Shown piece after piece: positions 16,514 through 58,027 of a DNA stretch of 64,000 bases. A program made the position numbers and the translations under genes. Under the pieces are notes generated by a model. That model saw only the letters and a list, made by a program, of their open reading frames with translations, was not told the DNA's origin and made no database searches. Position 1 is the first letter of the stretch; every line of letters begins with the position of its first letter. This stretch comes from Catellatospora methionotrophica (GTDB lineage Bacteria > Actinomycetota > Actinomycetes > Mycobacteriales > Micromonosporaceae). The stretch covers positions 496,001 through 560,000 of the forward strand of contig NZ_JAAOTJ010000002.1 in the NCBI RefSeq assembly GCF_011297335.1, in the 5' to 3' direction.

Positions 16514-16516
16514 AGC

Positions 16517-16891: not shown

Positions 16892-16945
16892 GCCAGGCCC
16901 GCCACCAGGGGCGGTGTGCGGCCCGCGTCGGGTAGGTTCTGCGCC

Positions 16946-40138: not shown

Positions 40139-40879
40139 TCAGACGCCGACGCGCTCGCCGATCGCGGCCAGCCATCGCGCGGCCTGGTGCGGGTCGGGGC
40201 TGGTCAGCCCGTACAGGTCGGTTACCGCGCGGGCGGCCGCGACCCAGTCGCCGTCCCGCAGCGCGGTGCAGGCCCGCGCGGCCGCGTAGTCCCACCAGGC
40301 CTGCCGGTCGGTGGGCGGCTGTGGCCAGCCGGTCTCGAACCGGGTCAGCCGCCGGTACGCCGCGTCGCACGCGTCACGCAGCCACGTCCGTTCGGCCGCC
40401 GACACCGCCGTCCCGGCGGCTGCGATGGCCAGTGGCCGCCGCCACGAGGTCGGCAGCAGCACCTCGTCGACGCCGCGCAGTGCCCCGGCCACGACGGCGT
40501 GCAGGGTGGCGTCGTCCGCGCCGTCCAGGTGCCGGACGGACCAGCCGAGGCGGGCGAAGACCTCGGCGTCGGGCAACGGCACCCACGAGTCGAGTTCGCT
40601 GAACGCGTGGGCGAGGTCGGCGTGCGCCCCGGCCGCGCCCAGCGCGACGGCCTGGCGTACGCCGATGGTGTGCCCGCGGGTGAGCAGCCCGGCGGCAGGG
40701 GTGAGCTGGACCCGCTGGTGCGGGGCCGACCGGGGATGGAATCCCTGGTCTGGGCCCCAGCACCAGCGGTCGGGCCGTACGCCGTGGGGGATCAGCCCAG
40801 CGAACGGGCCCGTCGACGACACCGGTGGACAGCGATGGGCTCCGGTCTCACTGTTCAGCCAGTCCGTCGATCCGGTCAT
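40139..40879 (-). CDS. Hypothetical protein in ssuD operon
   Basis: A 246-residue soluble protein I do not recognise. It is largely helical, with a motif-poor middle (HAFSELDSWVPLPDAEVFAR, GALRGVDEVLLPTSWRRPL) and a C-terminal half resembling helical repeats (AWWDYAAARACTALRDGDWV, AARAVTDLYGLTSPDPHQAA). No signal peptide or membrane segment. ATG 40879 begins 11 nt after the ssuD stop, so it is co-transcribed and probably co-regulated by sulfur supply. A role in sulfonate use is inference from position only. Confidence 0.72.
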   Translation of the reverse strand: MTGSTDWLNSETGAHRCPPVSSTGPFAGLIPHGVRPDRWCWGPDQGFHPRSAPHQRVQLTPAAGLLTRGHTIGVRQAVALGAAGAHADLAHAFSELDSWVPLPDAEVFARLGWSVRHLDGADDATLHAVVAGALRGVDEVLLPTSWRRPLAIAAAGTAVSAAERTWLRDACDAAYRRLTRFETGWPQPPTDRQAWWDYAAARACTALRDGDWVAAARAVTDLYGLTSPDPHQAARWLAAIGERVGV

Positions 40880-40890
40880 GGGGTCACCGC

Positions 40891-42042
40891 CTAACGGGAC
40901 GGGGCAGCGAACGGGATCTTGGGTAGTTCCTGTGCCGGGTCGCCGGCCGGGTGTGTCCACAGGCCGCGGTCGCGCAGGATCGGCAGCACACCCTCGCCGA
41001 ACCAGTACGCCTCCTCGACGTGCGGGTGTCCGGACAGGATGAACTCGCTGATGCCGAGGTCGGCGTATTCGGCGATGCGGTCGGCGATCTCGGTGTGGCT
41101 GCCGACCAGCGCGGTGCCCGCGCCGCCACGGACCAGGCCGACGCCCGCCCACAGGTTCGGTGCGATCTGCAGGCTGTCGCGCCTGCCGCCGTGCAGGGCG
41201 AGCATGCGCCGCTGCCCTTCGGACTCGCTGCGGGCCAGGCCCGCCTGCACGGTGGCGATGTCGCCGTCGCTGATGCCGTCGAGCAGCTTGCGGGCCTGCG
41301 CCCAGGCCTCGTCGGCGGTGTCGCGGGCGATGACGTGCAGCCGGATGCCGTAGCGCAGCTCGCGGCCCTGCTCGGCGGCGAGTTCGCGGATCCAGTCGAG
41401 CTTGCCGGCGACCTGTGCGGGCGGCTCGCCCCAGGTGAGGTAGACGTCGGCGTGCCTGGCGGCGACCGGACCGGCGGCCTGGGACGAGCCGCCGAAGTAG
41501 ATCGGCGGCACCGGGTCGGGCACCCGGGGCAGGGTCGCGCCCTCGATACGGTGGTGCTCACCGGTGAAGTCGACGCTGCCGCCCCGCCACAGCGAGCGGG
41601 TGACGTGCAGGAACTCGTCGGCGCGGGCGTAGCGGGCGTCCTTGTCGAGCCAGTCGCCGTACGCCCGCTGCTCGTGGGTCTCGCCGCCGACGACGACGTT
41701 GAGCAGCAGCCTGCCCTCGGAGTGGCGCTGGAAGGTGGCGGCCATCTGCGCGGCGAGGGTCGGTGACAGCAGGCCAGGCCGGAACGCGACGAGGAACTTC
41801 AGCCGTTCGGTGACCTCGGTGAGCATCGCGGTGGACAGCCAGGCGTCCTCGCACCACGCGCCGGTCGGCGTGAGCGCGCCGGCGAAGCCCAGCTGCTCGG
41901 CGGTGCGGGCGATCTGGCCGAGGTAGGCCAGCGTCGCCGGGCGCGCGCCGCCGGCCACGCCCGCGGGCAGGCCGTGGCCGCCGCCGACGATGAACCGGCT
42001 GTCGCCGTAGGTGGGCAGGAACCAGTGGAAGGCGAGGCTCAT
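40891..42042 (-). CDS. ssuD: FMNH2-dependent alkanesulfonate monooxygenase
   Basis: A 383-residue luciferase-fold monooxygenase cleaving alkanesulfonates to aldehyde and sulfite with FMNH2 and O2. It matches SsuD throughout: FHWFLPTYGDSRFIVGGGHG at the N-terminus, GALTPTGAWCEDAW (with the Cys found in SsuD), VAFRPGLLSPTLAAQMAAT, LLNVVVGGE, PPIYFGGSSQAA, the active-site RLHVIARDT and FILSGHPHVEEAY. The length equals the E. coli enzyme. It is divergent from the peptide-type importer across a 447-bp regulatory region with a 13-bp inverted repeat and a sulfur-linked motif. The FMNH2 donor is probably the SsuE protein at 47602 or the flavin reductase at 54827. Confidence 0.96.
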   Translation of the reverse strand: MSLAFHWFLPTYGDSRFIVGGGHGLPAGVAGGARPATLAYLGQIARTAEQLGFAGALTPTGAWCEDAWLSTAMLTEVTERLKFLVAFRPGLLSPTLAAQMAATFQRHSEGRLLLNVVVGGETHEQRAYGDWLDKDARYARADEFLHVTRSLWRGGSVDFTGEHHRIEGATLPRVPDPVPPIYFGGSSQAAGPVAARHADVYLTWGEPPAQVAGKLDWIRELAAEQGRELRYGIRLHVIARDTADEAWAQARKLLDGISDGDIATVQAGLARSESEGQRRMLALHGGRRDSLQIAPNLWAGVGLVRGGAGTALVGSHTEIADRIAEYADLGISEFILSGHPHVEEAYWFGEGVLPILRDRGLWTHPAGDPAQELPKIPFAAPSR

Positions 42043-42074
42043 GTTGCTGTCTCCGTGCTGTTCAGGGTGGGTCG

Positions 42075-42133
42075 CGGTCCGGGAGCCGCGGTGCCGTTGC
42101 CGCCGAACTCGCGGCCTCGTGGCTCCCGGACCG
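42075..42133 (-). repeat. Inverted repeat in the ssuD leader
   Basis: Perfect 13-bp arms CGGTCCGGGAGCC and complement (42075-42087, 42121-42133) enclose 33 nt, 33-91 nt upstream of the ssuD ATG. Because it lies before the gene, it could be an attenuator or a 5'-UTR structure rather than a terminator of something else. It matches no riboswitch that I can identify. Confidence 0.6.
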
Positions 42134-42223
42134 GCGTCGTGGGTGGATCAGAGCAGGTAAATCGGATGCTGGCATGGTCAGGCGGGCCAGCACAATCCAT
42201 CGAGCAGATAATTCATATTAACT

Positions 42224-42239
42224 CTATGGGATATACAGG
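42224..42239. promoter_or_regulatory. Putative sulfur-regulon motif 1 (ssuD/importer gap)
   Basis: CTATGGGATATACAGG contains the core ATGGGATATA (42226-42235). It sits 5 nt upstream of a TAATAT -10-like box (42220-42215, minus strand) reading towards ssuD. Related cores occur before the flavin reductase (54783) and before ssuA (58031). Confidence 0.5.
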
Positions 42240-42246
42240 AGAACTA

Positions 42247-42262
42247 TGTGATCCGGGTCACA
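42247..42262. promoter_or_regulatory. CRP/FNR-type binding site
   Basis: TGTGATCCGGGTCACA is a perfect match to the TGTGA-N6-TCACA consensus of CRP-family regulators. It lies between ssuD and the leader peptide gene, about 50 bp upstream of the likely leader start. The regulator is not encoded in the window. Confidence 0.65.
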
Positions 42263-42306
42263 AAAGCCTGGACGCTCTTGTCTGCGCGCTCCTACGGTCC
42301 CTAGCC

Positions 42307-42378
42307 ATGAAGCGAAGCCTGCGCCTGACTCAGCGGCGCCACGTGGACTTCCAAAGGGTGTGCAGCAGCGGCTGTTGA
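42307..42378 (+). CDS. Cysteine-containing leader peptide (sulfur attenuator)
   Basis: A 23-codon ORF whose product ends TQRRHVDFQRVCSSGC. The RRHVDxxRxxSxxC pattern is the hallmark of actinobacterial putative leader peptides found upstream of sulfur-assimilation genes. In mycobacteria, related cysteine-rich leaderless ORFs act as cysteine-responsive attenuators. Two Cys codons fall in the last six sense codons. A TACGGT -10-like box (42293-42298) lies 8 nt before the ATG and no Shine-Dalgarno is present, so it is probably leaderless. The ORF stops 111 nt before the GTG of the importer lipoprotein, and an imperfect stem (CCGAG 42420-42424, CTCGG 42453-42457) lies between. Low cysteine would stall ribosomes here and raise expression of the operon. 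Confidence 0.82.
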   Translation: MKRSLRLTQRRHVDFQRVCSSGC

Positions 42379-42489
42379 CGCCGCCGTCAACCTGCGCCGC
42401 GTTCCTCGACTCCGAAACCCCGAGCCGCTCTCGACGACACGAGGACGGCCGTCTCGGCACACCCTCCACCGCCTGCGAAGGGCTTCACC

Positions 42490-44163
42490 GTGCGTTTCCA
42501 CCTGTCCACCCGCCTGCTCGCCGCGACCGTCGCGATCGGCGCACTGACCGCCTGCGGCTCCGCCGGCGGCATCAGCCCGGCCAGCGCCGACGCGTCGTCG
42601 CGTACCGCCGGGGCTGTGCTCAACGGCGGGGGCTCCCCGGTCGACGGGGGCATCCTGCACCTGTCGATGTCCGCCGACCCGCTCTGCCTCGACCCGCACG
42701 CCATCTCCTCCGACGTGGAGCAGATCTTCGGGCGCATCCTCACCGACAACCTCGTCTACCTCGACGCCGGCGGCAACCCCGGGCCGTGGCTGGCCGAGAA
42801 GTGGGACATCTCCGCCGACGGCAAGGTCTACACGTTCCACCTGCGCAAGGGGGTGACGTTCAGCGACGGGGCGGTGTTCGACGCCGCCGCCGTGGTCGCC
42901 AACTTCGCGCACATGCTCGACCCGGACACCCGCTCGCCGCTGGCCGGGCCGTACATCGCGCCGTACGAGGGCAGCCGCATCGTCGACCCGTACACGCTGG
43001 AGGTGACCCTCAAGCAGCCGTACACCCCGTTCCTGGACGTGCTGGCGCAGGGCTGGCTCGGCCTGCTGTCGCCCAAGGCGATCAAGGAGAGCACCCCGGC
43101 GCAGCTGTGCGAGAAGCCGGTCGGCTCCGGGCCGTTCGTGCTGACCGGATACACCAAGACGCAGGGGGCGACGTTCGTCCGGCGCGAGGGCTACGACTGG
43201 GCGCCGCCGCAGCTCGGCTACTCCGGGGCGGCCCACCTCGACGGCATCGACGTGTCCTGGGTCGGGCAGGACGCCGTACGGTTCAACTCGCTGGTCAGCA
43301 ACCAGTACCAGGCCACCGGGTACGTGCCCGCGCAGAACGCGGCGGCGGTCAAGACGAACCCGAACCTGGTGTACTCCAACGTCAACCGGATCGGGCTGCC
43401 GTACACCATCGAGTTCAACACCTCCCGGGCGCCGTTCGACGACCTCGCGATCCGGCAGGCGTTCGTGTCCGCGGTCGACCGCGAGGCCCTGGTCAAGACC
43501 GTCGGGTTCGGTGAGCGGCAGCTCGCGACCAGTTTCGTGGACCGGGTCACCAAGTACTACGACCCGGCGGTGAAGCTGCGCGGGCACGACCTGAAGGTCG
43601 CGAACGAGCTGCTGGACAAGGCGGGCTGGACCGGGCGCGACGCCGAGGGATACCGCACCAAGGACGGCAAGCCGCTGCTGGTGCAGTGGCCGGTGGCCCA
43701 GACCGCCACCATCAGCCCGATCTTCGACCTGGTCCAGGCGCAGGTGAAGGCCGTCGGTATCAAGGTCGACATCGAGCTGCTGCCCAGCGCGCAGCTGACC
43801 ACCAGACGCTACGGCGGCGACTACGACCTGTCGGCGGGTGTCTGGCACACCAACACCCCCGACGTGCTGTACATCAAGTACGCCACGTTCAGCATCCCCA
43901 ACGCCACACGGCTGGGCCAGAACACCTCCCGCATCAGCGACGCCCAGCTCGACGGATGGCTGGAGGAGGCCCGCCGCACCGGTGACCGGGCGAAACTGAC
44001 CGATCTGTACGCCAAGTCCCAGCAGCGCCTGGCCGAACTGGTGCCCGGCTTCCCCGTCTACGACAACTCCGTGCTGTGGGCGTTCAGCGCCAAGCTGCAC
44101 GACGTCGTCGTCGACACCTCTCACGGCACCCCGTACTTCGGGTACGCCTGGCTGGAGAAGTAG
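42490..44163 (+). CDS. ABC transporter substrate-binding lipoprotein, peptide/opine family
   Basis: A 557-residue extracytoplasmic family-5 (DppA/NikA-type) binding protein. The lipobox is GALTAC with Cys near residue 22. The family signature region is GPWLAEKWDISADGKVYTFH with LRKGVTFSDGAVFDA after it, and there is a long two-lobed C-terminal domain. GTG 42490 has GAAGGG upstream. It is the first gene of an operon with two permeases, a double ATPase, ssuE, an SfnB-like enzyme and an NtaA-like monooxygenase, all behind a cysteine leader peptide. An organosulfur ligand, such as a sulfonated or thioether peptide-like molecule, is therefore more likely than ordinary peptides. The gap before it also holds the leader and CRP-type site. 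Confidence 0.92.
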   Translation: MRFHLSTRLLAATVAIGALTACGSAGGISPASADASSRTAGAVLNGGGSPVDGGILHLSMSADPLCLDPHAISSDVEQIFGRILTDNLVYLDAGGNPGPWLAEKWDISADGKVYTFHLRKGVTFSDGAVFDAAAVVANFAHMLDPDTRSPLAGPYIAPYEGSRIVDPYTLEVTLKQPYTPFLDVLAQGWLGLLSPKAIKESTPAQLCEKPVGSGPFVLTGYTKTQGATFVRREGYDWAPPQLGYSGAAHLDGIDVSWVGQDAVRFNSLVSNQYQATGYVPAQNAAAVKTNPNLVYSNVNRIGLPYTIEFNTSRAPFDDLAIRQAFVSAVDREALVKTVGFGERQLATSFVDRVTKYYDPAVKLRGHDLKVANELLDKAGWTGRDAEGYRTKDGKPLLVQWPVAQTATISPIFDLVQAQVKAVGIKVDIELLPSAQLTTRRYGGDYDLSAGVWHTNTPDVLYIKYATFSIPNATRLGQNTSRISDAQLDGWLEEARRTGDRAKLTDLYAKSQQRLAELVPGFPVYDNSVLWAFSAKLHDVVVDTSHGTPYFGYAWLEK

Positions 44164-44165
44164 AC

Positions 44166-45098
44166 ATGCGCCAGCTGAAACGGATCGCCACCCGGTTCGC
44201 CGCCGGCGTCGGGGTGCTGTGGGGCGCGGCGACGCTGTCGTTCGCCGCGCTGCACGTCACCGCGGGCGACGCGGCCCTGGCGACGGTGGCCGGGGACGGA
44301 GCCAACCCGACCCAGGCCGTGCTCGACCGGGTCCGCGCCGACTACGGCCTCGACCAGCCCCTGTGGCAGCAGTACCTCGGCTATCTCGGCCGGCTGCTGC
44401 AGGGGGACCTGGGCGAGAGCTACCAGCAGCGCGTACCCGTGGCGACGGCGATCGGGGAGCAGCTGGGCGAGACGGTTCAGCTGGCGCTGTCGGCCGCGCT
44501 GGTCGCGGTCGTCCTGGCGGTGGGGACCGCGGTCCTCACCGCCAGGAGGCGGCCGTGGATCCGCTCGGCCGCCTCGGGCACCGAACTGGTGCTCACCTCG
44601 TTCCCGACGTTCGTGCTCGGCCTGGTGCTGCTCATCGTGTTCTCGTTCCAGGCCGGATGGTTCCCGGTGTCGGGCAACGACGGCCCCGCCGCACTGGTCC
44701 TGCCGACGTTCACCCTCGCGCTGCCGATCGCGGCGACGCTGTCGCAGGTGCTGCGCACCGAACTGGAGGAGGTCCTCGAACAGCCGTTCATCCTGACCGC
44801 CCGCAGCCGCGGCATGCGCGACGCGGGCGTACGGCTGCGCCACGCGCTGCGGCACGCGCTCATCCAGATCGTGACCATGTCCGGGTTCGTCATCGGCGGC
44901 CTGCTCGGCGGCGCGGTGATCACCGAGACGCTGTTCGTGCGCCGCGGCGTCGGCCAGCTCATGCTCACCGCCACCACCAGCAAGGACATTCCGCTGGTGC
45001 TCGGCGTGGTGCTGTTCGCGGCCGCCGTGTACGTGGTCGTCAACCTCGTCGTCGACATCGTCTACGGCCTCATCGACCCGAGAGTGGTGACCGCGTGA
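44166..45098 (+). CDS. ABC transporter permease (DppB type)
   Basis: A 310-residue inner-membrane permease with six hydrophobic segments. The N-terminal loop DRVRADYGLDQPLWQQYLGYLGR and QGDLGESY are typical of DppB/OppB proteins, and the coupling EAA-type loop is FILTARSRGMRDAGVRLRHA. VITETLFVRRGVGQLM follows. ATG 44166 is 2 nt after the binding protein stop. It pairs with the next permease, whose GTG overlaps its stop. Confidence 0.93.
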   Translation: MRQLKRIATRFAAGVGVLWGAATLSFAALHVTAGDAALATVAGDGANPTQAVLDRVRADYGLDQPLWQQYLGYLGRLLQGDLGESYQQRVPVATAIGEQLGETVQLALSAALVAVVLAVGTAVLTARRRPWIRSAASGTELVLTSFPTFVLGLVLLIVFSFQAGWFPVSGNDGPAALVLPTFTLALPIAATLSQVLRTELEEVLEQPFILTARSRGMRDAGVRLRHALRHALIQIVTMSGFVIGGLLGGAVITETLFVRRGVGQLMLTATTSKDIPLVLGVVLFAAAVYVVVNLVVDIVYGLIDPRVVTA

Positions 45099-45957
45099 CC
45101 GCCATCACCGTCCCCGCCGTCCTGCCCGAACGGCGCGGGCACACCGCCGCCCGGCGGCGTTCGCTGCGGCCCGGTGTCGTGCTCGGCCTGGCCTTCATCG
45201 GACTGCTCGCGGTCGCCGCCGCCGCGCCGGGGCTGCTCACCGCGCACGACCCGCTGGAGATCAGCAGCGCGGGCGCGTTCGTGCCACCCGGCGCGGAACA
45301 CCTGCTGGGCACCGACCAGTCCGGCCGGGACACCCTCGCCCGCATGGTCTACGGGGCGCGCTCGTCGCTGGTGATGGGCCTGGGCGCGACCGCGATCGCG
45401 GTGACGCTCGGCTCCGCGATCGGCCTGCTCGCGGGCCTGGCCAACCGGTACGTCGAGGGCGCCGTGATGCGGCTCATCGACGTGGCGCTGTCCATCCCGG
45501 ACCTGCTGCTGGCCCTGGTCGTCATCACCCTGCTGGGCACCGGCACGGTCAACGCGCTGTTCGCGGTCGCGTTCGCCAGCGTGCCCTACTACGCCCGGAT
45601 GATCCGCGCGCAGACCCACGTGGTCCGCAGCGCGGCCTACGTCGAGGCGGCCACCGCGCTGGGGCTGCGCCGGTCGGCGGTGATCCGCCGCCACATCCTG
45701 CCCAACGCGTTCAAGCCGCTGGTCGTGCTGGCCACCATCGGCGTCGGCAACGCCATCGGCGCGGGCGCGTCACTGAGCTTTCTCGGCCTGGGCACCAAGC
45801 CGCCCGCGCCGGAGTGGGGCAACATGCTCTCGCTGGGCATCCAGTACATCTCCAACGACCCGTTCATGGTGATCGTGCCCGGCGTGGCGATCACACTGAC
45901 CGTCCTGTCGGTGACGGTCGTCGGCCGGGACCTGCGCCGCCGTACGGAGGGCCGGTC

Positions 45958-45961
<4 letters not shown>
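45095..45961 (+). CDS. ABC transporter permease (DppC type)
   Basis: A 288-residue permease, partner of the DppB-type protein. It has the usual N-terminal cytoplasmic stretch, one TM, then FVPPGAEHLLGTDQSGRDTLARMVYG and VMGLGATAIAVTLGSAIG. The coupling loop is AAYVEAATALGLRRSAVIRRHILPN, and GAGASLSFLGLGTKPPAPEWGNML is the DppC C-terminal signature. GTG 45095 overlaps the previous stop (GTGA), and its own stop overlaps the ATPase start in the same way, so the importer genes are tightly coupled. Confidence 0.94.
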
Positions 45962-47589
<1,628 letters not shown>

Positions 47590-47601
47590 GGAGGAACACC
47601 T

Positions 47602-48153
47602 ATGCCCTCGATCCTCGCGATCTCCGGATCGCCCTCACCCACCTCCAAGACCGCGCGCGTGCTGCGCCACGTCACCGACAACCTGCCCGGCTCCGGCTCC
47701 TACGAGGTGCGCCACCTCGCCGTGCGGGACCTGCCCGCCGAGGCGCTGCTCGGCGCGGACGTGCGCCACCCGGCGATCCTGGCAGTCGGCGCGGCCATCG
47801 CGGCCGCCGACGGCGTCATCGTCGCGACGCCGGTCTACAAGGCCGCGTACAGCGGCGTGCTCAAGTCGCTGCTGGACCTGCTGCCGCAGTACGCGCTGGC
47901 CGGGAAGGTGGTGCTGCCGCTGGCCACCGGCGGCACCCCGGCACACGTGCTGGCCATCGACTACGCGCTGCGGCCGGTGCTGTCCAGCATGGGTGCCACG
48001 CACATCACCGCCGGGTGCTTCATCCACGACAAGGCCATCGTCGACACCGACGGCGGCGGCATCCTGCTCGACGCCACCGGCCAGGCCTTCCTGGACTCCG
48101 TCGTCACCGGCTTCACCGACGCCCTCGCGGCCCGTTCCCTGCAGGCGGCCTGA
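47602..48153 (+). CDS. ssuE: NADPH-dependent FMN reductase (SsuE type)
   Basis: A 183-residue flavodoxin-like reductase giving FMNH2 to sulfonate monooxygenases. Features are ILAISGSPSPTSKTARVLRH (flavin phosphate loop), GVIVATPVYKAAYSGVLKSL with LLDLLPQYALAGK after it, and LPLATGGTPAHVLAIDYALRP, all characteristic of SsuE/MsuE. ATG 47602 follows the ATPase stop by 12 nt, with GAGGAACACC as ribosome-binding site. It is immediately followed (1 nt) by the SfnB-like monooxygenase, whose reduced flavin it probably supplies. Confidence 0.95.
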   Translation: MPSILAISGSPSPTSKTARVLRHVTDNLPGSGSYEVRHLAVRDLPAEALLGADVRHPAILAVGAAIAAADGVIVATPVYKAAYSGVLKSLLDLLPQYALAGKVVLPLATGGTPAHVLAIDYALRPVLSSMGATHITAGCFIHDKAIVDTDGGGILLDATGQAFLDSVVTGFTDALAARSLQAA

Positions 48154-48154
48154 C

Positions 48155-49348: not shown

Positions 49349-49374
49349 CCGGCACAGCAGCAAGGAGCACCACC

Positions 49375-50724
49375 ATGGCCACCAAGCCACGGCAGATGAG
49401 CATCGGCATGAACATCCTCGGGCTCGGCGGGCACAACTCCGCCTGGCGGTACGGCGAGGTCGACCCGCTGTCCTACCTCGACATCGGCTACTACCAGAAC
49501 ATCGCCCGCATCTCCGAACGCGGCACCCTCGACGCGATCTTCCTCGCCGACGGGCCCGCGCTCGCCGGCGACCCCGGCGGCGGGCCGAGCGGGCGGCTGG
49601 AGCCGACGCTGGTGCTGACCGCCATCGCGCTGGCCACCGAGCGGATCGGCGTCATCGCCACCGCGTCGACCAGCTACAACGACCCGTACAACCTGGCCCG
49701 GCGGCTGTCCTCGCTGGACCACCTGTCCGGCGGGCGGGCCGCGTGGAACATCGTCACCACCGCCGGGGACGCCGCGGCCCGCAACTTCGGCCTCACCGGC
49801 GCGCCCGTGCACGACGACCGCTACGGCCGCGCCGAGGAGTTCGTCGACATCGCGGTCAAGCTCTGGGACAGCTGGGAGGACGACGCGATCGTCGCCGACC
49901 GGGCGAGCGGCCTGTTCGCCCACGGGGACCGGGTGCACACCATCGACCACGAGGGCAGCCACTTCGCGGTACGCGGCCCGCTGAACGTCCCGCGCTCGCC
50001 GCAGGGCCGCCCGGTGCTCGTGCAGGCCGGATCGTCCGAGCACGGCAAGGCCCTGGCCGCCCGCCGCGCCGACGCCGTGTTCACCGCGCAGACCACCCTG
50101 GCCGACGGGCAGGCCTTCTACGCCGAGATGAAGGCCCGCGCCGCGGCGTTCGGCCGGGACCCCGACACGCTGAAGATCATGCCGGGACTGTCCACGGTCA
50201 TCGGCGGCACCGAGGCCGAGGCGCTGGCCCGCCAGGCCGAACTGGACGCGTTCCAGGGCATCGAGGCGCAGGTAGGGCAGGTCGCGCAGCGGCTGCAGCT
50301 GGACCCCAGGCACCTCGAGCTCGACGAGGAGCTGCCCTGGCACCTCATCGGCGACGCGCTGCAGGTCGAGAACGGCTCCCGCGGCTTCTTCGACGCGCAG
50401 ATCAACCTGGCCCGGCGGGAACGGCTCACGGTCCGGCAGCTCGCGGGACGGATCCGCTCCGGGCACCGCCTGGTCGCGGGGTCGCCCGAGCAGATCGCCG
50501 ACACCCTCGAAGAGTGGTTCGTCAACGGGGCCGCCGACGGGTTCAACCTGATGCCCGACATGTTCCCGTCCGGCGCGGAGGTGTTCGTCGACCACGTCGT
50601 GCCGATCCTGCGCCGCCGTGGGCTCTTCCGCACCGAGTACACCGGCACGACCCTGCGCGACCACCTGGGCCTCGAACGACCCGCCAGCCAGTATGCCGCC
50701 GTGCCGCACGCCGTCGCGGCCTGA
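49375..50724 (+). CDS. LLM-class monooxygenase of the NtaA/SnaA/DszA family
   Basis: A 449-residue FMNH2-dependent TIM-barrel monooxygenase. Family signatures are MNILGLGGHNSAWRY, DAIFLADGPAL, TLVLTAIALATERIG, ATASTSYNDPYNLARRLSSL with DHLSGGRAAWNIVTT, and RPVLVQAGSSEHGKALAARR. The ~440-residue length separates this group (NtaA, SnaA, DszA, DmoA-like) from SsuD. ATG 49375 has AAGGAG. It is the last gene of the importer-ssuE-SfnB operon, and a hairpin follows at 50863. A sulfone- or thioether-cleaving role in sulfur scavenging is inferred from the operon. Confidence 0.93.
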   Translation: MATKPRQMSIGMNILGLGGHNSAWRYGEVDPLSYLDIGYYQNIARISERGTLDAIFLADGPALAGDPGGGPSGRLEPTLVLTAIALATERIGVIATASTSYNDPYNLARRLSSLDHLSGGRAAWNIVTTAGDAAARNFGLTGAPVHDDRYGRAEEFVDIAVKLWDSWEDDAIVADRASGLFAHGDRVHTIDHEGSHFAVRGPLNVPRSPQGRPVLVQAGSSEHGKALAARRADAVFTAQTTLADGQAFYAEMKARAAAFGRDPDTLKIMPGLSTVIGGTEAEALARQAELDAFQGIEAQVGQVAQRLQLDPRHLELDEELPWHLIGDALQVENGSRGFFDAQINLARRERLTVRQLAGRIRSGHRLVAGSPEQIADTLEEWFVNGAADGFNLMPDMFPSGAEVFVDHVVPILRRRGLFRTEYTGTTLRDHLGLERPASQYAAVPHAVAA

Positions 50725-50862
50725 GCCACCGCGACCACCGTCGCCTCGGCGGCGCGACGCGTATGGCGTCACCCCGGCGCGGTAACCCGTCGCGGTGGGT
50801 CCGGGCGCTGTGCCATGGTGGCAGTGGGGCCGGTCCCCTCCGGACCACCATCACGCTGAAGC

Positions 50863-50902
50863 CCGCTCGTCTCGGGACTCGCAAGCGTCCCGAAACGAGC
50901 GG
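50863..50902. terminator. Terminator of the sulfur operon
   Basis: 16-bp arms with a single mismatch (50863-50878, 50887-50902; GCTCGT and CGGGAC blocks) and an 8-nt loop. A TACCCT -10-like box (50916-50921) for the ABC exporter genes follows directly. Nothing else is seen between 50725 and 50974. Confidence 0.7.
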
Positions 50903-50974
50903 CGGCGCGGTGACGTACCCTTGCCCCCCGCCGCCGGACCCCCGCGGTGAGCAGCCTCCACCCCCTGGAGCGTG

Positions 50975-52777: not shown

Positions 52778-52814
52778 GCCGCGGCGGCGTCAGCGAGAAC
52801 GGGGGGCAGCGGGC

Positions 52815-54764
52815 ATGAGCATGTTCGGAGGCGGGTTCGGCGGGCCGGGCGGGGGACCCGGTAGCGGCCCGATGGGCGGGCTCAGCGGCGTCGGCGCGGG
52901 CCGCGGCACCCGGCGCACGGGTGACACGCTGCCGTTCGCGGGAGTGCCGGACGAGCTGGCGGCGGGCGTACGCCGCTTGGAGGACGCCGAGCCTGAGCAC
53001 GGCGTTCCGGAGGACAGGTTCGGGCACCGGCCGCCGGAAGGGCCCGCGCTGAGCCTGCTGTCGCTGCTGACCCGGCGTCGCGGGGTGTTCCTGGCGGCGT
53101 GCGTGACCATCCTCGCCGAGACGCTGCTGCTGCAGGCCGGGCCGTACCTGGTGCAGGTCGGCATCGACCACGGCATCGTCGCACGCGATCTGCCGGTGCT
53201 GCTGTGGTCGGCGGGCGCGTTCACGGCGGCGGTGCTGGCCGGGTGGGCCACCACGACCGCGCGCATGCGCCAGACCGGGGCGCTGGCCGCCGACGCGATG
53301 CGCCACCTGCGGGTACGCGTCTTCGCGCACCTGCAGCGGCTGTCCATGGACTACTACACCGAGGAGAAGGCCGGGGTCATCATGACCCGGATGTCGTCGG
53401 ACATCGAGTCGCTGCAGCAGCTCCTGCAGGAGGGCCTGGCCCAGTTCGCGGTGCAGGGCCTGACCATGGTCGTGGTGACGGCGGTGCTGTTCCACTACGA
53501 CGCGGGCCTGGCCGCGATCACGCTGCTGCTGGTCGTGCCGGCGCTGTTCGCGGCGTCGGTGTGGTTCCGGCGGGCTTCCGACGTCGGCTACGCCCGCCAG
53601 CGCGACGCCATCGCGGCGATGTTCACCGACCTGGCCGAGAGCCTGCACGGGGTGCGGGTGGTCACCGCGCACCACCGCGAGGACCGCAACATCGCCCAGC
53701 ACCGCACCGTGGTCGGCCGTTACCGGGACGCGAACGACTTCACCGGCCACATCAGCGCGATCTACGGCCCCGGCACCTCGGTCATCGGCCTGCTCGGCAT
53801 GGCGGCCCTGCTGCTGATCGGCGGGCGCATGGTGCTGCGCGGGCAGCTGAGCATCGGTGAGCTGACCGCGTTCGTGCTCTATCTCAACGCGTTCTTCGCC
53901 CCGGTGCAGCAGTTGGTGCAGCTGTACACGAACTACCAGCAGAGCCGGGCGGCGGTGGCGAAGCTGCGTACGCTGCTGGGGCAGGCGCCGACGGTGGCTG
54001 AGCGCGCCGACCCGGTCGAGCTGCCACCGGTGGCCGGGGGGATCGTCTTCGAGAAAGTCGTGTTCGGCTACGACCCGGCGCGCCCGGTGCTGCGCGGGGT
54101 GGACCTGCGGATCGAGCCGGGGGAGACGATCGCCTGCGTCGGGCCGACCGGGGCTGGCAAGTCGACGCTGGCGAAGCTGGTCACGCGGCTGCACGACCCG
54201 GACTCGGGCCGGGTCCTGATCGACGGGCACGACCTGCGCGACGTCAGTCTGGTCTCGCTGCGCCGTCAGATCGGGGTGGTGCCGCAGGAGCCGTTCATGT
54301 TCGCCGGGTCGATCCGGGACAACGTCGCGTTCGCCCGGCCCGGGGCGAGCGAGGCCGAGATCTGGGCGGCGATCGACGCCGTCGGCCTGCGTGACCTGGT
54401 CGAGCGTACGGACGCCGGGCTGGACGCGACGCTGCACGAGCGGGGGCAGTCGGTGTCGTCGGGCCAGCGGCAGCTGCTGGCGCTGGCGCGGGCGTTCCTG
54501 GCCCAGCCGAGGGTGGTGGTGCTGGACGAGGCGACCTCGAACCTGGACCTGCGCTCTGAGCTGCGCGTCGAGCAGGCTCTGGATCGTCTGCTGGAGGGCC
54601 GTACGGCGCTGCTCATCGCGCACCGGCTGTCCACCGCGATGCGTGCCGACCGGATCGTGGTGCTGGACGAGTCGGGGGTCGTCGAGATCGGATCGCACGC
54701 CGAGCTGCTGGCCGCCGAGGGCCGCTACGCCGACATGTTCGCGACCTGGTCCCGGCACCGTTGA
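52815..54764 (+). CDS. ABC exporter half-transporter, subunit 2 (degenerate signature)
   Basis: A 649-residue partner subunit. It begins with a Gly/Pro-rich soluble stretch (MSMFGGGFGGPGGGPGSGP) and ~75 residues before the first membrane helix, an extension subunit 1 lacks. The ATPase has Walker A GPTGAGKST near residue 445, an atypical signature SVSSGQRQLLALARA near 547 and a normal Walker B VVVLDEATSNLD near 570. The non-canonical signature would face the Asp-substituted Walker B of subunit 1, so both changes fall in one composite site. ATG 52815 follows the subunit 1 stop by 37 nt. A lipid, drug or peptide cargo cannot be assigned. Confidence 0.93.
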   Translation: MSMFGGGFGGPGGGPGSGPMGGLSGVGAGRGTRRTGDTLPFAGVPDELAAGVRRLEDAEPEHGVPEDRFGHRPPEGPALSLLSLLTRRRGVFLAACVTILAETLLLQAGPYLVQVGIDHGIVARDLPVLLWSAGAFTAAVLAGWATTTARMRQTGALAADAMRHLRVRVFAHLQRLSMDYYTEEKAGVIMTRMSSDIESLQQLLQEGLAQFAVQGLTMVVVTAVLFHYDAGLAAITLLLVVPALFAASVWFRRASDVGYARQRDAIAAMFTDLAESLHGVRVVTAHHREDRNIAQHRTVVGRYRDANDFTGHISAIYGPGTSVIGLLGMAALLLIGGRMVLRGQLSIGELTAFVLYLNAFFAPVQQLVQLYTNYQQSRAAVAKLRTLLGQAPTVAERADPVELPPVAGGIVFEKVVFGYDPARPVLRGVDLRIEPGETIACVGPTGAGKSTLAKLVTRLHDPDSGRVLIDGHDLRDVSLVSLRRQIGVVPQEPFMFAGSIRDNVAFARPGASEAEIWAAIDAVGLRDLVERTDAGLDATLHERGQSVSSGQRQLLALARAFLAQPRVVVLDEATSNLDLRSELRVEQALDRLLEGRTALLIAHRLSTAMRADRIVVLDESGVVEIGSHAELLAAEGRYADMFATWSRHR

Positions 54765-54779
54765 GGAAAGTCTACAATT

Positions 54780-54795
54780 CCGATAGGATATGACG
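54780..54795 (+). promoter_or_regulatory. Putative sulfur-regulon motif 2
   Basis: CCGATAGGATATGACG (core ATAGGATATG, 54783-54792) ends about 20 nt upstream of the TACCGT -10 box (54815-54820) of the leaderless flavin reductase gene, where an activator next to the -35 would bind. Confidence 0.5.
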
Positions 54796-54826
54796 AGGTT
54801 ACTCCTCGTGCTGCTACCGTCAAGAC

Positions 54827-55432
54827 ATGAATGTTGATCGATGTCGTGTCGAGGTTCCGGCAACCGTCACCTCCGCCCCGAGAGACACCCCCATGACGCT
54901 CACCGCGCTGCCCTCGACTCCGTCCGACGACCTGTCCAGCTCCGGCGTGGGCGGGGTGGAACTGCACCGTTACCTCGGCCTGCTGCGCCGCCACGCCACC
55001 ACGGTCACCGTGGTGACCGCGCCGGGTCAGGCCGGTGACCCGCCCGTCGGGTTCACCGCCACCTCGTTCACCTCCGTGTCGCTGCGACCGCAGCTCGTCT
55101 CGTTCTGCCTCGACCGTGACTCCTCCAGCTGGCCCACCGTCGCCCAGGCCCGTCACGTGGCGATCCACCTGCTCGCCGAAGGCCAGCAGGAGGTGGCCCG
55201 CACCTTCGCGACCCGCGGTGTCGACCGCTTCGCCGACACGACCCGGTGGCGCCACGGCCCCTACGGCATGCCGCTGCTGCACGGCGTGCTGGCGGTGCTG
55301 GTCTGCGAGGTCGTCCAGCGGGTTCCGGCCGGGGACCACGCGATCGTGCTGGGCCGCCCGGTCAGCGCCGAGCACCACCCCGGCGACCCGCTGCTGCACC
55401 ACATGGGCGGCTACACCCACCTGGCGCGCTGA
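54827..55432 (+). CDS. Flavin reductase family protein (HpaC-like)
   Basis: A 201-residue split-barrel flavin reductase that produces free FMNH2 or FADH2 with NAD(P)H for partner monooxygenases. Segments include LGLLRRHATTVTVVTAPGQA, PVGFTATSFTSVSLRPQLVS (flavin-binding core), FCLDRDSSSWPTV and HLLAEGQQEVARTFATRGVDRF. ATG 54827 is chosen because TACCGT lies 6 nt before it, a leaderless arrangement; ATG 54893 is an alternative lacking this. It is convergent with ssuB and carries sulfur motif 2 in its promoter, which suggests it serves SsuD or the other monooxygenases of this island. Confidence 0.9.
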   Translation: MNVDRCRVEVPATVTSAPRDTPMTLTALPSTPSDDLSSSGVGGVELHRYLGLLRRHATTVTVVTAPGQAGDPPVGFTATSFTSVSLRPQLVSFCLDRDSSSWPTVAQARHVAIHLLAEGQQEVARTFATRGVDRFADTTRWRHGPYGMPLLHGVLAVLVCEVVQRVPAGDHAIVLGRPVSAEHHPGDPLLHHMGGYTHLAR

Positions 55433-55454
55433 GAGCAGGCCGCCGGGACGGCGT

Positions 55455-56174
55455 TCAGGCGGCGACGCCCAGCCGCTCCAGCAGGTGGCGGCGCAGCGCG
55501 CCGAAAGCCGGATCATCGGGCGTACGCGGATGGGCCAGCGGGACCGGGGCGTCCTCGACCAGCCGGCCGCCCTCCAGCACCAGGGTGCGGTCGGCCAGCA
55601 GCAGCGCCTCGTCGACATCGTGCGTGACCAGCAACGCCGCGAAGCCGTGCTGCTCGCGCAGCCGGATGAACAGCTGCTGCATGCGCAGCCGGGTCAGCGC
55701 GTCCAGCGCGCCGAACGGCTCGTCGAGCAGCAGCAGTTCCGGCTCGCGTACCAGCGCGCGGGCGACCGCGACACGCTGAGCCTGCCCGCCGGACAGCTCG
55801 GCGGGCCAGGCGGTGTCCCGATCGGGCAGGCCGACCTCCGCCAGCGCCGCGCGGGCCCGGGTACGCACGTCCGGCCCGGACAGCCCGAGCGCGACGTTGT
55901 CCAGGACGCGCTTCCACGGCAGCAGCCGGTGCTCCTGGAACACGACCGCGTGATGGAGCGGGCGGCGTACGTTGCCGCTGGCATCCGGGTCGAGCCCGGC
56001 GAGGATGCGCAGCAGGGTGCTCTTGCCCGACCCACTGCCGCCGAGCAGCGCGACCACCTCGCCGGGCGCGATGGTCAGGTCGATCCCGTCCAGCACGACG
56101 CTCACCCCGAACGAGCGCCGTACGCCGCCCGCCGTCAGCACCGGGCTCAGGTCGCCTTCAGGCCGCGTCGCCAT
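55455..56174 (-). CDS. ssuB: Aliphatic sulfonate ABC transporter ATPase
   Basis: A 239-residue ATPase of the nitrate/sulfonate/taurine importer class. It has GGSGSGKSTLLRILAGLDPD (Walker A), VVFQEHRLLPWKRVLDNVALG (the Q-loop text typical of SsuB/TauB), LSGGQAQRVAVARALVREP and LLLLDEPFGALDALTR, with VTHDVDEALLLADR as H-loop. ATG 56174 lies 28 nt inside the ssuC reading frame, so translation is coupled. It is the last gene of the ssuACB operon and energises uptake through SsuC. Confidence 0.95.
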   Translation of the reverse strand: MATRPEGDLSPVLTAGGVRRSFGVSVVLDGIDLTIAPGEVVALLGGSGSGKSTLLRILAGLDPDASGNVRRPLHHAVVFQEHRLLPWKRVLDNVALGLSGPDVRTRARAALAEVGLPDRDTAWPAELSGGQAQRVAVARALVREPELLLLDEPFGALDALTRLRMQQLFIRLREQHGFAALLVTHDVDEALLLADRTLVLEGGRLVEDAPVPLAHPRTPDDPAFGALRRHLLERLGVAA

Positions 56175-57001
56175 GACAGCGTCCTCCTCTCCGCCAGCCG
56201 CAGCAGCAGATCCGACAGCAGGCCCAGCAGCGCGTACACGAGCAGGCCGAGCAGCACCACGTCGGTCTGGGCGAACTCGCGCGCCTCCATCATCAGGAAG
56301 CCGATGCCGGTCTGGGCGTTGACCTGCTCGCCGACGACCAGGCTGAGCCAGGCCGCGCCGATGGCCAGCCGCAGCCCGAGGAACAGCGACGGCAGCGCGC
56401 CGGGCAGCACCACGTGCCGCAGCCGCGCGAGCTGGCCGAGCCCGCAGGCGCGGGCCGCCTCGACGAGCCGCTCGTCGATGTCACGGATACCGGCGTAGGT
56501 GTTGAAGTAGATCGGGAAGAAGCTGCCCAGCGCGACCAGCGTGATCTTCAGTTCCTCGCCGATGCCGACCCAGATGATCAGCAGTGGGACCAGGCCGAGG
56601 TGCGGCAGCATCCGGGCCATCTGCACCGGCGGGTCGACCAGGTCGTCGCCGACGCGCAGCAGGCCCGCGACCGCGCCCAGCAGCAGGGCCAGCCCGCCGC
56701 CGATCACCAGCCCGAGCGCCGCGCGCTGCAGCGAGTCCAGCAGGTGCACGGCGAGGGTCCCCTCGGCGGTCAGCCGCCAGCCGGTGCGCAGCACCTCGCT
56801 GGGCGCGGGCAGCTTCTCCGGCGGCAGCAGCCCGGTCCGGGCGGCGGCCTCCCAGCCGGCGAACAGCACGATGGGACTGACCAGCCGGAGCACACGGCGA
56901 CCGCGGCGGGGCCGGGCGGAACGGTCCGGTGCCGGGGTCACCGCCTCGGCCGACGGGGCGCGGACGGCGGCCGGAGCCACCGTCCGCGGTGCGGCTGTCA
57001 T
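56147..57001 (-). CDS. ssuC: Aliphatic sulfonate ABC transporter permease
   Basis: A 284-residue BPD-type permease with a Pro/Ala-rich cytoplasmic N-terminus of ~40 residues and six hydrophobic segments. The coupling loop is RLVEAARACGLGQLARLRHVVLPGALP. SsuC/TauC-like text includes WEAAARTGLLPPEKLPAPSE, QMARMLPHLGLVPLLIIWVG and MMEAREFAQTDVVLLGLLVY. ATG 57001 overlaps the ssuA stop by 4 nt. It works with SsuA and SsuB to import alkanesulfonates. Confidence 0.95.
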   Translation of the reverse strand: MTAAPRTVAPAAVRAPSAEAVTPAPDRSARPRRGRRVLRLVSPIVLFAGWEAAARTGLLPPEKLPAPSEVLRTGWRLTAEGTLAVHLLDSLQRAALGLVIGGGLALLLGAVAGLLRVGDDLVDPPVQMARMLPHLGLVPLLIIWVGIGEELKITLVALGSFFPIYFNTYAGIRDIDERLVEAARACGLGQLARLRHVVLPGALPSLFLGLRLAIGAAWLSLVVGEQVNAQTGIGFLMMEAREFAQTDVVLLGLLVYALLGLLSDLLLRLAERRTLSWRRGLKAT

Positions 57002-57963
57002 CGCAGCGCCTCGTTGAAGCGGCCGTCGATCCGGGACTTGATGTCGATCTTCTCGGGGATGAGCTGGAGCGCGGCGAAGCCGTCGGCGATGGCCTGCAGC
57101 TCGTCGCCGATCTCGGGGGTGATCGCGGCCAGCGGCTGCGCGCTGCGCTCCAGCGCGCGGCTGGTCACGTCGAGCGGGATCTTCAGCTCGGGTGCGAGCA
57201 CCGCGGCGCGCTCGGCGGGGTTGGCGATGCCCCAGTCGGTCACCGTGCGGTACTGCTTGATGAACTCGCCAAGCTGGTCGGTCTTCTGGTCCAGCGCGGC
57301 CGGGTCGACGAGCAGGTACTCGCGGTTGCTCGCCAGGCCGGTGGCGTCCTCCAGGATGGCGACGCCGGGCTGCTCCGCCAGGGCGAAGTAGGGGTCCCAG
57401 ATGATCCAGGCGTCGACCTGGTCGCCGTCGAAGGCCGGGCGGGCCTCGGCGGGCTTGAGATACTTGACGTCGATGTCGGTGATCTTGAGATTGTGCTTCT
57501 CCAGCAGCTTCACCAGCAGCCAGTTGACGTTGGAGCCCTTGTTCAGGGCGACCTTCTTGCCCTTGAGGTCGGCGAAGGTCTTGAACCCCTTGGCCTGCTT
57601 GACGAGCACGGCCTCACCCTTGGGCACGGGAGCCGAGGTGCCGATGATCCTGAAATCGATCTTTCCGGCGGCGGCGAAGATCGGGGGAGCCTCGCCGGTC
57701 TGCCCGATGTCGATCGCCCGGCCTTTGATGCCCTCGGTCAGCGCGGGGCCGCTCTCGAACAGCGACCAGGTGGCCTTCGGGTCGGCGGCGTTGCGTGCCT
57801 TGACCAGGCTGAGGCCGCCGAACCGCTGGTAGCCGATGCGCAGCGGCTGCCCGGCGGCGGCCGGCTCCTCGCCGCCGCAGGCCGACAGCAGGGTCGCGGA
57901 CAGCGGGGCCGCCGCGAGCGCGGCCAGCAGCGTACGGCGGGAAAGTCCAGGCTGGGCCTGCAT
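56998..57963 (-). CDS. ssuA: Aliphatic sulfonate substrate-binding lipoprotein
   Basis: A 321-residue binding protein. The signal region carries a twin-arginine-like SRRTLLAALAAAPL and a lipobox LLSAC with Cys near residue 29, so it is a lipoprotein, possibly Tat-exported. Family text includes LRIGYQRFGGLSLVKAR, GRAIDIGQTGEAPPIFAAAG, VLVKQAKGFKTFADLKGKKV and DAWIIWDPYFALAEQ. ATG 57963 has AGGAG at 7 nt. It is the first gene of the ssuACB operon. Its upstream region holds sulfur motif 3 next to a TAGCCT -10 box (58022-58017). Confidence 0.95.
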   Translation of the reverse strand: MQAQPGLSRRTLLAALAAAPLSATLLSACGGEEPAAAGQPLRIGYQRFGGLSLVKARNAADPKATWSLFESGPALTEGIKGRAIDIGQTGEAPPIFAAAGKIDFRIIGTSAPVPKGEAVLVKQAKGFKTFADLKGKKVALNKGSNVNWLLVKLLEKHNLKITDIDVKYLKPAEARPAFDGDQVDAWIIWDPYFALAEQPGVAILEDATGLASNREYLLVDPAALDQKTDQLGEFIKQYRTVTDWGIANPAERAAVLAPELKIPLDVTSRALERSAQPLAAITPEIGDELQAIADGFAALQLIPEKIDIKSRIDGRFNEALR

Positions 57964-58027
57964 GAATCGTCTCCTGAGGGGTTGCGGCTAAATCTCGTCA
58001 CCGACGCGATCGAGAAAGGCTATCAAC

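What the first reader, a model, noticed from the sequence alone, without database searches (positions are those of the whole stretch)
40139..57963. Composite organosulfur acquisition island
One region holds ssuD with an unknown partner gene, a peptide-class ABC importer fused by overlapping frames to an SsuE reductase, an SfnB/DszC-like and an NtaA/DszA-like monooxygenase, a separate flavin reductase and ssuACB. The peptide-class importer in one operon with three flavin enzymes implies import and intracellular oxidation of an organosulfur compound other than simple alkanesulfonates. The gene families are established; the shared pathway and cargo are inference.
Basis: partly seen in the sequence, partly recalled or inferred. 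Interest (0 to 1): 0.75.

Follow-up and report, generated by a model that had tools for sequence, protein, structure and literature searches.

The report
Nested organosulfur-scavenging operon splitting ssu
An actinomycete carries a set of genes that probably imports a still unidentified sulfur-containing organic compound and breaks it down for its sulfur; the set sits inside a split sulfonate-utilisation operon and is probably switched on by lack of cysteine.

Summary
The genes are there. Core: a seven-gene operon (42490-50724): SBP_bac_5 protein, two permeases, fused ATPase, SsuE, SfnB/DszC-like and NtaA/YtnJ-like monooxygenases. The "overlapping-frame fusion" to SsuE is wrong (12-nt gap), and two ABC exporter genes were missed.

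New evidence supports a sulfur role. A 23-codon ORF (42307-42378) resembles cysteine-attenuator leaders (below curated cut-offs). The three other matches with E<0.01 in this genome precede sulfurtransferase-, arylsulfatase- and sulfite/nitrite-reductase-like genes. Window and three congeners encode the identical peptide, differing only synonymously.

ssuACB and ssuD-partner are contiguous in congener G255 and split here by an opposite-strand block. Two congeners lack importer plus both monooxygenases but keep SsuE and deletion scars.

46 of 80 loci of SfnB-like relatives hold such an importer. The binding protein belongs to a W-x-T-N-[TS]-x-[DE] subfamily lacking the (recalled) peptide-anchoring Asp.

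Cargo unknown; leader attenuation, pathway order untested. Similar importers were already reported induced on benzothiophene versus sulfate in Gordonia. New variant of a known kind.

The parts
40139..40879 (-). Partner gene, 246 aa, no known family; after ssuD on the same strand
   Evidence: No Pfam/NCBIfam match, no solved relative (one hit, E 0.56); no match at E<=1e-8 in the 248 other genomes of the order sample, but beside SsuD in the stretches read of 7 of the 10 other genus genomes; dN/dS 0.27-0.35 against five of these, 0.79 and 0.73 against the two distant ones G255, G256
40891..42042 (-). SsuD-like FMNH2-dependent (alkane/methane)sulfonate monooxygenase
   Evidence: TIGR03565 460 bits, under its 518 cut-off; nearest solved chains 7jv3 (418 bits) and 1nqk, SsuD (385)
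42136..42201 (-). Probable remnant of the first ~21 codons of a lost second SfnB-like gene (sfnB2) that stands upstream of ssuD in relatives
   Evidence: tblastn of C. paridis SfnB2 against three short stretches: 22 aa, 59%, E 9e-5 for that tiny search
42219..42234 (+). Promoter/operator-like element TAACTCTATGGGATAT before the leader
   Evidence: In a block conserved with G250, G252, G258, one base of the element varying; also before SsuE in G251/G253; pattern matches 5 sites in the genome, 3 in this locus, but was built from these sites
42307..42378 (+). Cysteine leader-like peptide ORF, MKRSLRLTQRRHVDFQRVCSSGC*
   Evidence: NF042936 E 1e-8 (34.6 bits, cut-off 45), NF042934 E 5.2e-5 (22.8, cut-off 27); same peptide in window, G250, G252, G258, five codons differing and all synonymously; position
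42490..44163 (+). Substrate-binding protein, SBP_bac_5, with WHTNTPD motif
   Evidence: PF00496 E 2.7e-82; motif in 19 of 19 SBP hits at >=35% identity, 0 of 47 lower ones, 1 of 10 SBP_bac_5 of this genome
44166..45098 (+). Importer permease B
   Evidence: PF00528 E 4.3e-27; start
45095..45961 (+). Importer permease C
   Evidence: PF00528 E 4.3e-27; 4-nt overlap with permB
45958..47589 (+). Importer ATPase, two fused nucleotide-binding domains
   Evidence: PF00005 two stretches, oligo_HPY; start
47602..48153 (+). SsuE-type NADPH-dependent FMN reductase
   Evidence: TIGR03567 210.6 bits, over cut-off 164.05
48155..49348 (+). SfnB/DszC-like flavin monooxygenase (acyl-CoA dehydrogenase fold family)
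   Evidence: TIGR04022 320 bits, under cut-off 430.9; solved relatives 8cda, TdsC, DszC, methanesulfinate monooxygenase 6u76
49375..50724 (+). NtaA/DmoA-family monooxygenase closest to B. subtilis YtnJ among solved structures
   Evidence: TIGR03860 528 bits, over cut-off 279.7; 6ask/1tvl 338 bits, DszA-type 5tlc 291 bits
50972..52777 (+). ABC exporter half 1 (role in pathway not shown)
   Evidence: PF00664 + PF00005; present in window and G250, G251, G252, G253, G258
52815..54764 (+). ABC exporter half 2 (role not shown)
   Evidence: PF00664 + PF00005; same genomes
54776..54791 (+). Element related to those before ssuA and the leader, in front of the flavin reductase
   Evidence: five congeners have the diverged form TTCCCATAGGAGATAG at the same place, none an exact pattern match
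54827..55432 (+). Flavin reductase (Flavin_Reduct)
   Evidence: PF01613 E 1.4e-39; no NCBIfam cut-off reached
55455..56174 (-). SsuB-like ATPase
   Evidence: PRK11247 248 bits, cut-off 395
56147..57001 (-). SsuC-like permease
   Evidence: PRK11365 246 bits, cut-off 347
56998..57963 (-). SsuA sulfonate-binding protein
   Evidence: TIGR01728 179.3 bits, over cut-off 163.5
58024..58039 (-). Element AAATCCTATGGGGTTG (part of CCCATA-N5-TATGGG inverted repeat) before ssuA
   Evidence: six other ssuA upstream regions printed carry it in the same or a related form; exact pattern near ssuA in 8 congeners, not in G256

Best explanation
A sulfur-starvation cassette inserted, on the opposite strand, between ssuB and ssuD of a resident ssuACB-(sfnB2)-ssuD-partner operon. 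When cysteine is scarce, ribosomes falter in the Cys leader peptide and the importer operon is expressed (inferred from the leader's kind and company; attenuation not shown). The binding protein, of a distinct W-x-T-N-[TS]-x-[DE] subfamily, brings in an organosulfur compound that is neither a simple sulfonate (ssuACB would do that) nor an ordinary peptide. Inside, the YtnJ/DszA-like and the SfnB/DszC-like enzyme, with FMNH2 from SsuE, oxidise sulfur and break a C-S bond; the resulting sulfonate goes to SsuD and its sulfite to the sulfite-reductase-family enzyme whose gene has its own Cys leader. Shown: gene content, order and families, leader conservation, ssu genes contiguous in a congener and split here, joint absence with scars in two congeners, recurrence across phyla. 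Inferred: insertion as the direction of change, substrate class (thioether, sulfone or similar), order of the oxidation steps, and that SsuD takes their product.
For: Leader. Split ssu operon: ssuA-C-B-D-partner contiguous in G255; in G256 and G257 a shortened SfnB2-like frame lies between ssuB and ssuD. Importer, SfnB-like and NtaA-like genes absent together in G251 and G253, SsuE kept, scars that differ. permB+permC+ATPase in 46 of 80 loci around SfnB-like relatives, 45 with an SBP, against 10 SBP_bac_5 genes in 8.39 Mb here (about 2.5% per 21 kb, my arithmetic). In Nonomuraea L082 a second SfnB-like (37%), SsuD (74%), SfnB-like (63%) and SsuE are adjacent, diverging from an importer. Recalled peptide-anchor Asp absent. 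Published: two peptide-class importers, one beside a monooxygenase by locus number, induced on benzothiophene versus sulfate in Gordonia terrae C-6.
Against: The leader scores under both curated cut-offs. The leader-to-SBP RNA folds no better than shuffles (z -0.11) and has indels between congeners. Outside the genus only L062 and L143, of 88 loci scanned, showed a leader by my regex and eye. None of the 15 nearest Pseudomonas/Acinetobacter loci (L070-L081, L083, L093, L095) has an SsuD hit, so SsuD need not be part of the module. The Gordonia genes were not compared with the window's. In G251 nothing of SfnB-like or NtaA-like is left downstream of SsuE, so their loss there is inferred. The window lacks sfnB2, a second NtaA and an aldo/keto reductase that congeners have, so its pathway may be reduced. 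No substrate, activity or expression was measured.
Confidence: 0.64

Rival explanations
1. The importer operon is sulfur-regulated but its cargo is a sulfur-containing peptide or S-conjugate (glutathione conjugate, S-substituted cysteine), and the YtnJ-like enzyme acts as in the B. subtilis S-alkylcysteine routes.
For: Nearest solved relatives of the NtaA-like protein are YtnJ/MoxC (338 bits); the binding protein scores 142 bits with glutathione-binding GsiB, which also lacks the Asp.
Against: No acetyltransferase, deacetylase or peptidase match among the operon genes; the GsiB score is far under its 594 cut-off; YtnJ's substrate is recalled, not tested.
Confidence: 0.25
2. The parts are only neighbours: sulfur genes gather in one region without a shared pathway; importer, exporters and flavin reductase serve unrelated cargo.
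For: Three transport systems and two reductases in 18 kb; the exporters stay where importer and monooxygenases are absent; SsuD is absent from the nearest Pseudomonas/Acinetobacter loci.
Against: Importer, SfnB-like and NtaA-like genes are absent together in two congeners and importer and SfnB-like genes recur together in other phyla; operon gaps of 26 nt or less.
Confidence: 0.12
3. Nickel/metallophore or ordinary oligopeptide uptake with chance neighbours.
For: NikA-type profile 190 bits and permeases score best with Opp/Nik models; NikA is among the nearest solved chains.
Against: All under cut-offs; recalled NikA residues R137 and H416 align with G and S, only R97 with R; recalled DppA Asp408 aligns with Asn.
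Confidence: 0.04

Closest known systems
ssuEADCB alkanesulfonate utilisation
   Same: SsuE, SsuA, SsuD-like, SsuB/C-like genes present; ssuACBD contiguous in G255
   Different: Here ssuB and ssuD are about 13 kb apart with opposite-strand genes between, SsuE sits inside another operon, and a genus-restricted partner gene follows ssuD
SBP_bac_5-type importers beside monooxygenases in Gordonia terrae C-6 (GTC6_13080-13100, PMC3868597)
   Same: Peptide-class importer beside an FMNH2-dependent monooxygenase (adjacent locus numbers), induced on benzothiophene versus sulfate (section 7 read)
   Different: Sequence relation to the window genes not tested; the section read names no leader, and its induced FMN reductase (GTC6_04560) is elsewhere by locus number
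TIGR04028 (KPN_01854-type) binding proteins
   Same: Best NCBIfam match of the binding protein and of a Pseudomonas relative (212 and 211 bits)
   Different: Under the 468.5 cut-off; a link of that family to a luciferase-like monooxygenase is recalled, not tested
sfn/msu and dsz desulfurisation enzymes (SfnB, MsuC, DszC; SfnG, DszA; MsuD)
   Same: Enzyme classes; likely reaction order by analogy (recalled)
   Different: No DszB-like match among the scanned genes; SfnB-like protein under SfnB and DszC cut-offs; a dedicated importer
Mycobacterial cysteine-rich leader ORFs (Ms4527A/Ms5788A families)
   Same: Motif and C-terminal Cys; three other copies in this genome precede sulfur genes
   Different: Here before an organosulfur importer operon; cut-offs not reached

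Membership tests
SsuE (TIGR03567) | Curated score | tested here: met
   210.6 vs 164.05
NtaA/DmoA family (TIGR03860) | Curated score | tested here: met
   528.1 vs 279.7
SsuA family (TIGR01728) | Curated score | tested here: met
   179.3 vs 163.5
SsuD equivalog (TIGR03565) | Curated score | tested here: not met
   460.3 vs 518.2; called SsuD-like
SfnB equivalog (TIGR04022) | Curated score | tested here: not met
   320 vs 430.9; called SfnB-like
DszC (NF043015) | Curated score | tested here: not met
   133.7 vs 850
TIGR04028 binding proteins | Curated score | tested here: not met
   212.2 vs 468.5
Dipeptide/oligopeptide-binding proteins (DppA/OppA) | Asp that holds the peptide amino group (DppA Asp408, recalled) | tested here: not met
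   Alignment with E. coli DppA, OppA: Asn in the window
NikA-type nickel binding | R97, R137, H416 (recalled) | tested here: not met
   R, G, S in the window
Cysteine-rich leader peptides (NF042936, NF042934) | Curated score | tested here: not met
   34.6 vs 45 and 22.8 vs 27
Cysteine-rich leader peptides (NF042936, NF042934) | Conserved peptide with terminal Cys, under coding constraint, of a kind that precedes sulfur genes | tested here: met
   translation itself not shown
Cysteine-rich leader peptides (NF042936, NF042934) | Cysteine-dependent attenuation | not testable with these tools
   RNA fold unremarkable; needs a reporter assay
4S-type desulfurisation (dsz) | DszB desulfinase | tested here: not met
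   No such match among the 20 frames scanned from 37975 to 59727

The most novel reading that the evidence does not exclude
A previously undescribed organosulfur uptake-and-desulfurisation system, defined by a W-x-T-N-[TS]-x-[DE] binding protein and a SfnB-like monooxygenase, shared by horizontal transfer between Pseudomonadota (where a TonB-dependent receptor sits just upstream in some loci, hinting at a scarce or bulky cargo) and a few actinomycetes, and placed under cysteine-leader control in the latter.
Probability: 0.4. Interest if true: 0.65.

Novelty: new variant of a known kind. Interest (0 to 1): 0.5.

Why it matters
SBP_bac_5 importers next to flavin monooxygenases recur in the loci seen here and their cargo is unknown. 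This locus gives a sequence-based sulfur assignment (Cys leader), a natural presence/absence series within one genus that separates the module from the ssu genes, and a diagnostic motif of the binding protein, so the cargo question becomes a defined ligand screen.

Tried and rejected
Riboswitch: Rfam scan of the window gave 0 matches at gathering score. RNA structure between leader and SBP: z -0.11, no support. Ancestral absence of the importer in G251/G253: rejected, since both keep the leader's promoter region before SsuE, G253 also a 40-nt SBP piece and G251 a shortened leader read by eye; whether one or two events is open. Partner gene function: single-sequence model pLDDT 44.4, pTM 0.34, not interpretable; no fold search made. 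The element pattern WAWYYCNATNGGRTWK was derived from the sites it finds, so 3 of 5 genome hits in the locus are not independent; of the other two, by eye, one precedes a sugar-type binding protein and one lies between a dehydrogenase-like and a hydrolase-like gene, no sulfur link seen; among the 88 loci L061-L148 it matched only in L069. Leader regex: the first scan missed two of the four leaders that the profile found; of the 15 rows that one search printed I kept five as leader-like by eye (L062, L069, three in L143). In one search only 150 of 324 first-look candidates were scored, so further leaders may exist. Papers: listings only apart from two papers whose passages I read; listings only, apart from papers named here; passages of PMC11852219, PMC7661421 and PMC13344012; one section of PMC3868597; the 2020 attenuator paper is not held and is known only from its citation in PMC9094748. 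Searches for a description of this gene set showed none beyond Gordonia transcriptomics in what I saw; they cover an open-licence library and mostly listings.
Full report
What is there. The window is C12:496001-560000 of an 8.39-Mb, 56-contig genome; the nearest named relative is Catellatospora paridis (SfnB-like 92%). From 40139 to 57963 lie: partner and SsuD-like (minus strand); SBP_bac_5 binding protein, two permeases, fused ATPase, SsuE, SfnB-like, NtaA-like (plus strand, gaps of 26 nt or less, 4-nt overlaps only among importer genes); two ABC exporter halves; a flavin reductase; ssuB, ssuC, ssuA (minus strand).

Regulatory evidence. Upstream of the binding-protein gene is a 23-codon ORF, 42307-42378, MKRSLRLTQRRHVDFQRVCSSGC*. 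It matches NCBIfam Cys-rich leader NF042936 at E 1e-8 and NF042934 at 5.2e-5, both under the curated cut-offs. A whole-genome search with NF042934 (150 of 324 first-look candidates scored) returned 11 matches at E<=10, four with E<0.01: this one and three others, two of them over the cut-off. The three are followed by a sulfurtransferase-like gene, an arylsulfatase-like gene and a gene of the sulfite/nitrite reductase family (all under equivalog cut-offs). The next match (E 0.086) reads in a 770-residue frame where one search shows a minus-strand gene. The three congeners with the importer (G250, G252, G258) encode the identical peptide; across the four genomes five codons differ, all synonymously. 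Shell et al. 2015 (PMC4633059, passages seen) proposed cysteine-rich upstream ORFs as attenuators in mycobacteria; Canestrari et al. 2020 is cited for this in PMC9094748 (passages) and was not held. No special RNA structure was found here.

A second shared element. Before ssuA stands CCCATA-N5-TATGGG; the upstream regions printed for window, G253, G251, G255, G256, G257 and G249 carry it in the same or a related form, and the exact pattern occurs near ssuA in G253, G250, G252, G258, G251, G249, G257 and G255 but not in G256. Related elements stand before the leader and the flavin reductase. The pattern has 5 matches in the genome, with 0 and 1 for the reversed control, and 4 in the window at up to one mismatch (two of them one palindromic site) against 0.03 expected; since the pattern was drawn from these sites, this shows rarity only. 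The element before the leader in G258 and the flavin-reductase element of five congeners (TTCCCATAGGAGATAG) do not match the exact pattern.

Natural history. In the genus sample (11 genomes) window, G250, G252 and G258 have the SfnB-like gene (4 of 11) and, in the stretches read, importer and NtaA-like genes as well. G251 and G253 have partner-SsuD, SsuE, exporters, flavin reductase, ssuBCA but none of importer, SfnB-like, NtaA-like. Their gaps hold remnants: the promoter region (both), a 40-nt SBP piece and an NtaA2/SsuE-edge piece in G253, pieces from the NtaA-tail/aldo-keto-reductase side downstream of SsuE in G253; in G251 only intergenic sequence next to exp1 there, and by eye the start of the leader upstream. 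So both lost the importer; for G251 the loss of the two monooxygenases is inferred from the shared order. G255 has ssuA-C-B-D-partner contiguous; G256 and G257 have the same run with a shortened SfnB2-like frame between ssuB and ssuD (partner seen in G256, not in G257); G249 shows ssuACB without ssuD in its stretch; G254 has no SsuA match at E<=1e-30. The six genomes with the block have SsuA at 93% or more to the window, the other four at 87-88%. The simplest reading is an opposite-strand insertion between ssuB and (sfnB2-)ssuD in an ancestor of the six; no outgroup or genus tree was used. The window further lacks sfnB2 (22-residue trace), a second NtaA, and an aldo/keto reductase that C. paridis has.

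Partner. dN/dS is 0.27-0.35 against five congeners and 0.73-0.79 against G255 and G256, so it is a real gene in the near group and diverges fast beyond; no relative outside the genus was found in the 248 other genomes sampled from the order.

Recurrence. 46 of 80 loci hold permB+permC+ATPase, 45 with an SBP; 57 hold an NtaA-like, 27 an SsuD-like hit; of the 64 loci longer than 20 kb, 37 hold the importer. L070 fails that criterion although it has all importer parts, because other genes stand between them, and L074 is a short contig. This genome has 10 SBP_bac_5 matches at E<=1e-20, about 2.5% per 21 kb by my arithmetic; other genomes may have more, and the 80 loci are not independent. The eight best other-genome matches of the order sample were read out to 16-20 kb: four have the importer. 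None of the 15 nearest Pseudomonas/Acinetobacter loci has an SsuD hit. Relatives of the C. paridis aldo/keto reductase lie in 27 of 80 loci, counted from the list. TonB-dependent receptor hits lie in 7 of those 15 loci (L071, L075, L077, L080, L081, L083, L093): directly upstream of the cluster in L075, L080, L081, L083, with one opposite-strand ORF between in L077, and several kb downstream in L071 and L093; a weak hit in L088 is left out. Three receptors were checked by Pfam.

Horizontal spread. In a tree of 48 rows (44 of the 80 loci, L069-L112, plus the window and three paralogues) window and C. paridis group with 19 Pseudomonadota (95/91), away from Paractinoplanes of the same family; long branches and a midpoint root limit this.

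The binding protein. At the column of E. coli DppA Asp408 (position recalled) the window has Asn in W-H-T-N-T-P-D. The motif W.TN[TS].[DE] is in 19 of 19 SBP hits at 35% identity or more, in 0 of 47 lower ones, and in 1 of 10 SBP_bac_5 of this genome (SBP hits of 300 columns or fewer were left out). NikA R137 and H416 (recalled) are not conserved, R97 aligns with R. So neither ordinary peptide nor nickel binding is expected, but structure and ligand were not tested.

Chemistry. NtaA-like: nearest solved chains YtnJ/MoxC (338 bits), then a nitrilotriacetate-type enzyme (319), DszA-type (291) and EDTA monooxygenase (285). SfnB-like: 8cda (147 bits), TdsC (121), DszC (112), methanesulfinate monooxygenase 6u76 (106). 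SsuD-like: 7jv3 (418) and SsuD (385). This allows C-S cleavage to a sulfinate, oxidation to sulfonate and desulfonation to sulfite, all with FMNH2 from SsuE; the order is inference.

Published parallels. In Gordonia terrae C-6 two peptide-class importers rose 10- to 37-fold by RT-qPCR on benzothiophene versus sulfate, one (GTC6_13085-13100) beside a monooxygenase GTC6_13080 by locus number (section 7 of PMC3868597). In G. alkanivorans 135 SfnB and NtaA-family proteins rose on dibenzothiophene (PMC11852219, passages). In Gordonia NB4-1Y two nitrilotriacetate-monooxygenase-type genes rose on organosulfur sources (PMC7661421, passages). So the association is known in kind; in what I saw of the searches named under Tried and rejected there was no description of this leader-preceded, SsuE-containing form.

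Verdict. Real, sulfur-linked, organised as a nested module; cargo open. New variant of a known kind.

Noticed in passing
50863-50902 and 58129-58170: Two similar long hairpins (CTCGTTTTCGGAC...GTCCGAAAACGAG type), read by eye, in the intergenic regions before exp1 and ssuA; possibly terminators or a repeat element.
   Followed up: no
G000 C6:105054-107638 (other contig of the same genome): Another SBP_bac_5 gene close to weak SfnB-profile (acyl-CoA-dehydrogenase-like) matches.
   Followed up: no
L194 (G000 C10:43120): A palindrome-like AAATCCTATAGGATAT site stands just before a sugar-type binding lipoprotein gene.
   Followed up: partly
L143 (Actinomycetospora succinea) 186, 7135 and 18673: Three Cys leader-like ORFs in one 21-kb locus with SfnB-like and NtaA-like genes.
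   Followed up: no
L021 (G000 C23:246913): A Cys leader precedes an arylsulfatase-like gene, suggesting cysteine control of sulfatase use.
   Followed up: partly
L186, L188 (unnamed congeners G257, G256): Shortened SfnB2-like frame of about 270 residues between ssuB and ssuD, open but matching only the N-terminal 60% of SfnB2.
   Followed up: partly
40139-40879: Gene after ssuD with no relative found outside the genus, under purifying selection among near congeners.
   Followed up: partly
L070 (Pseudomonas delhiensis) 16383-17480: A sigma-54 activator gene beside a second SfnB/DszC-like gene downstream of the cluster; relatives in several Pseudomonas loci.
   Followed up: no
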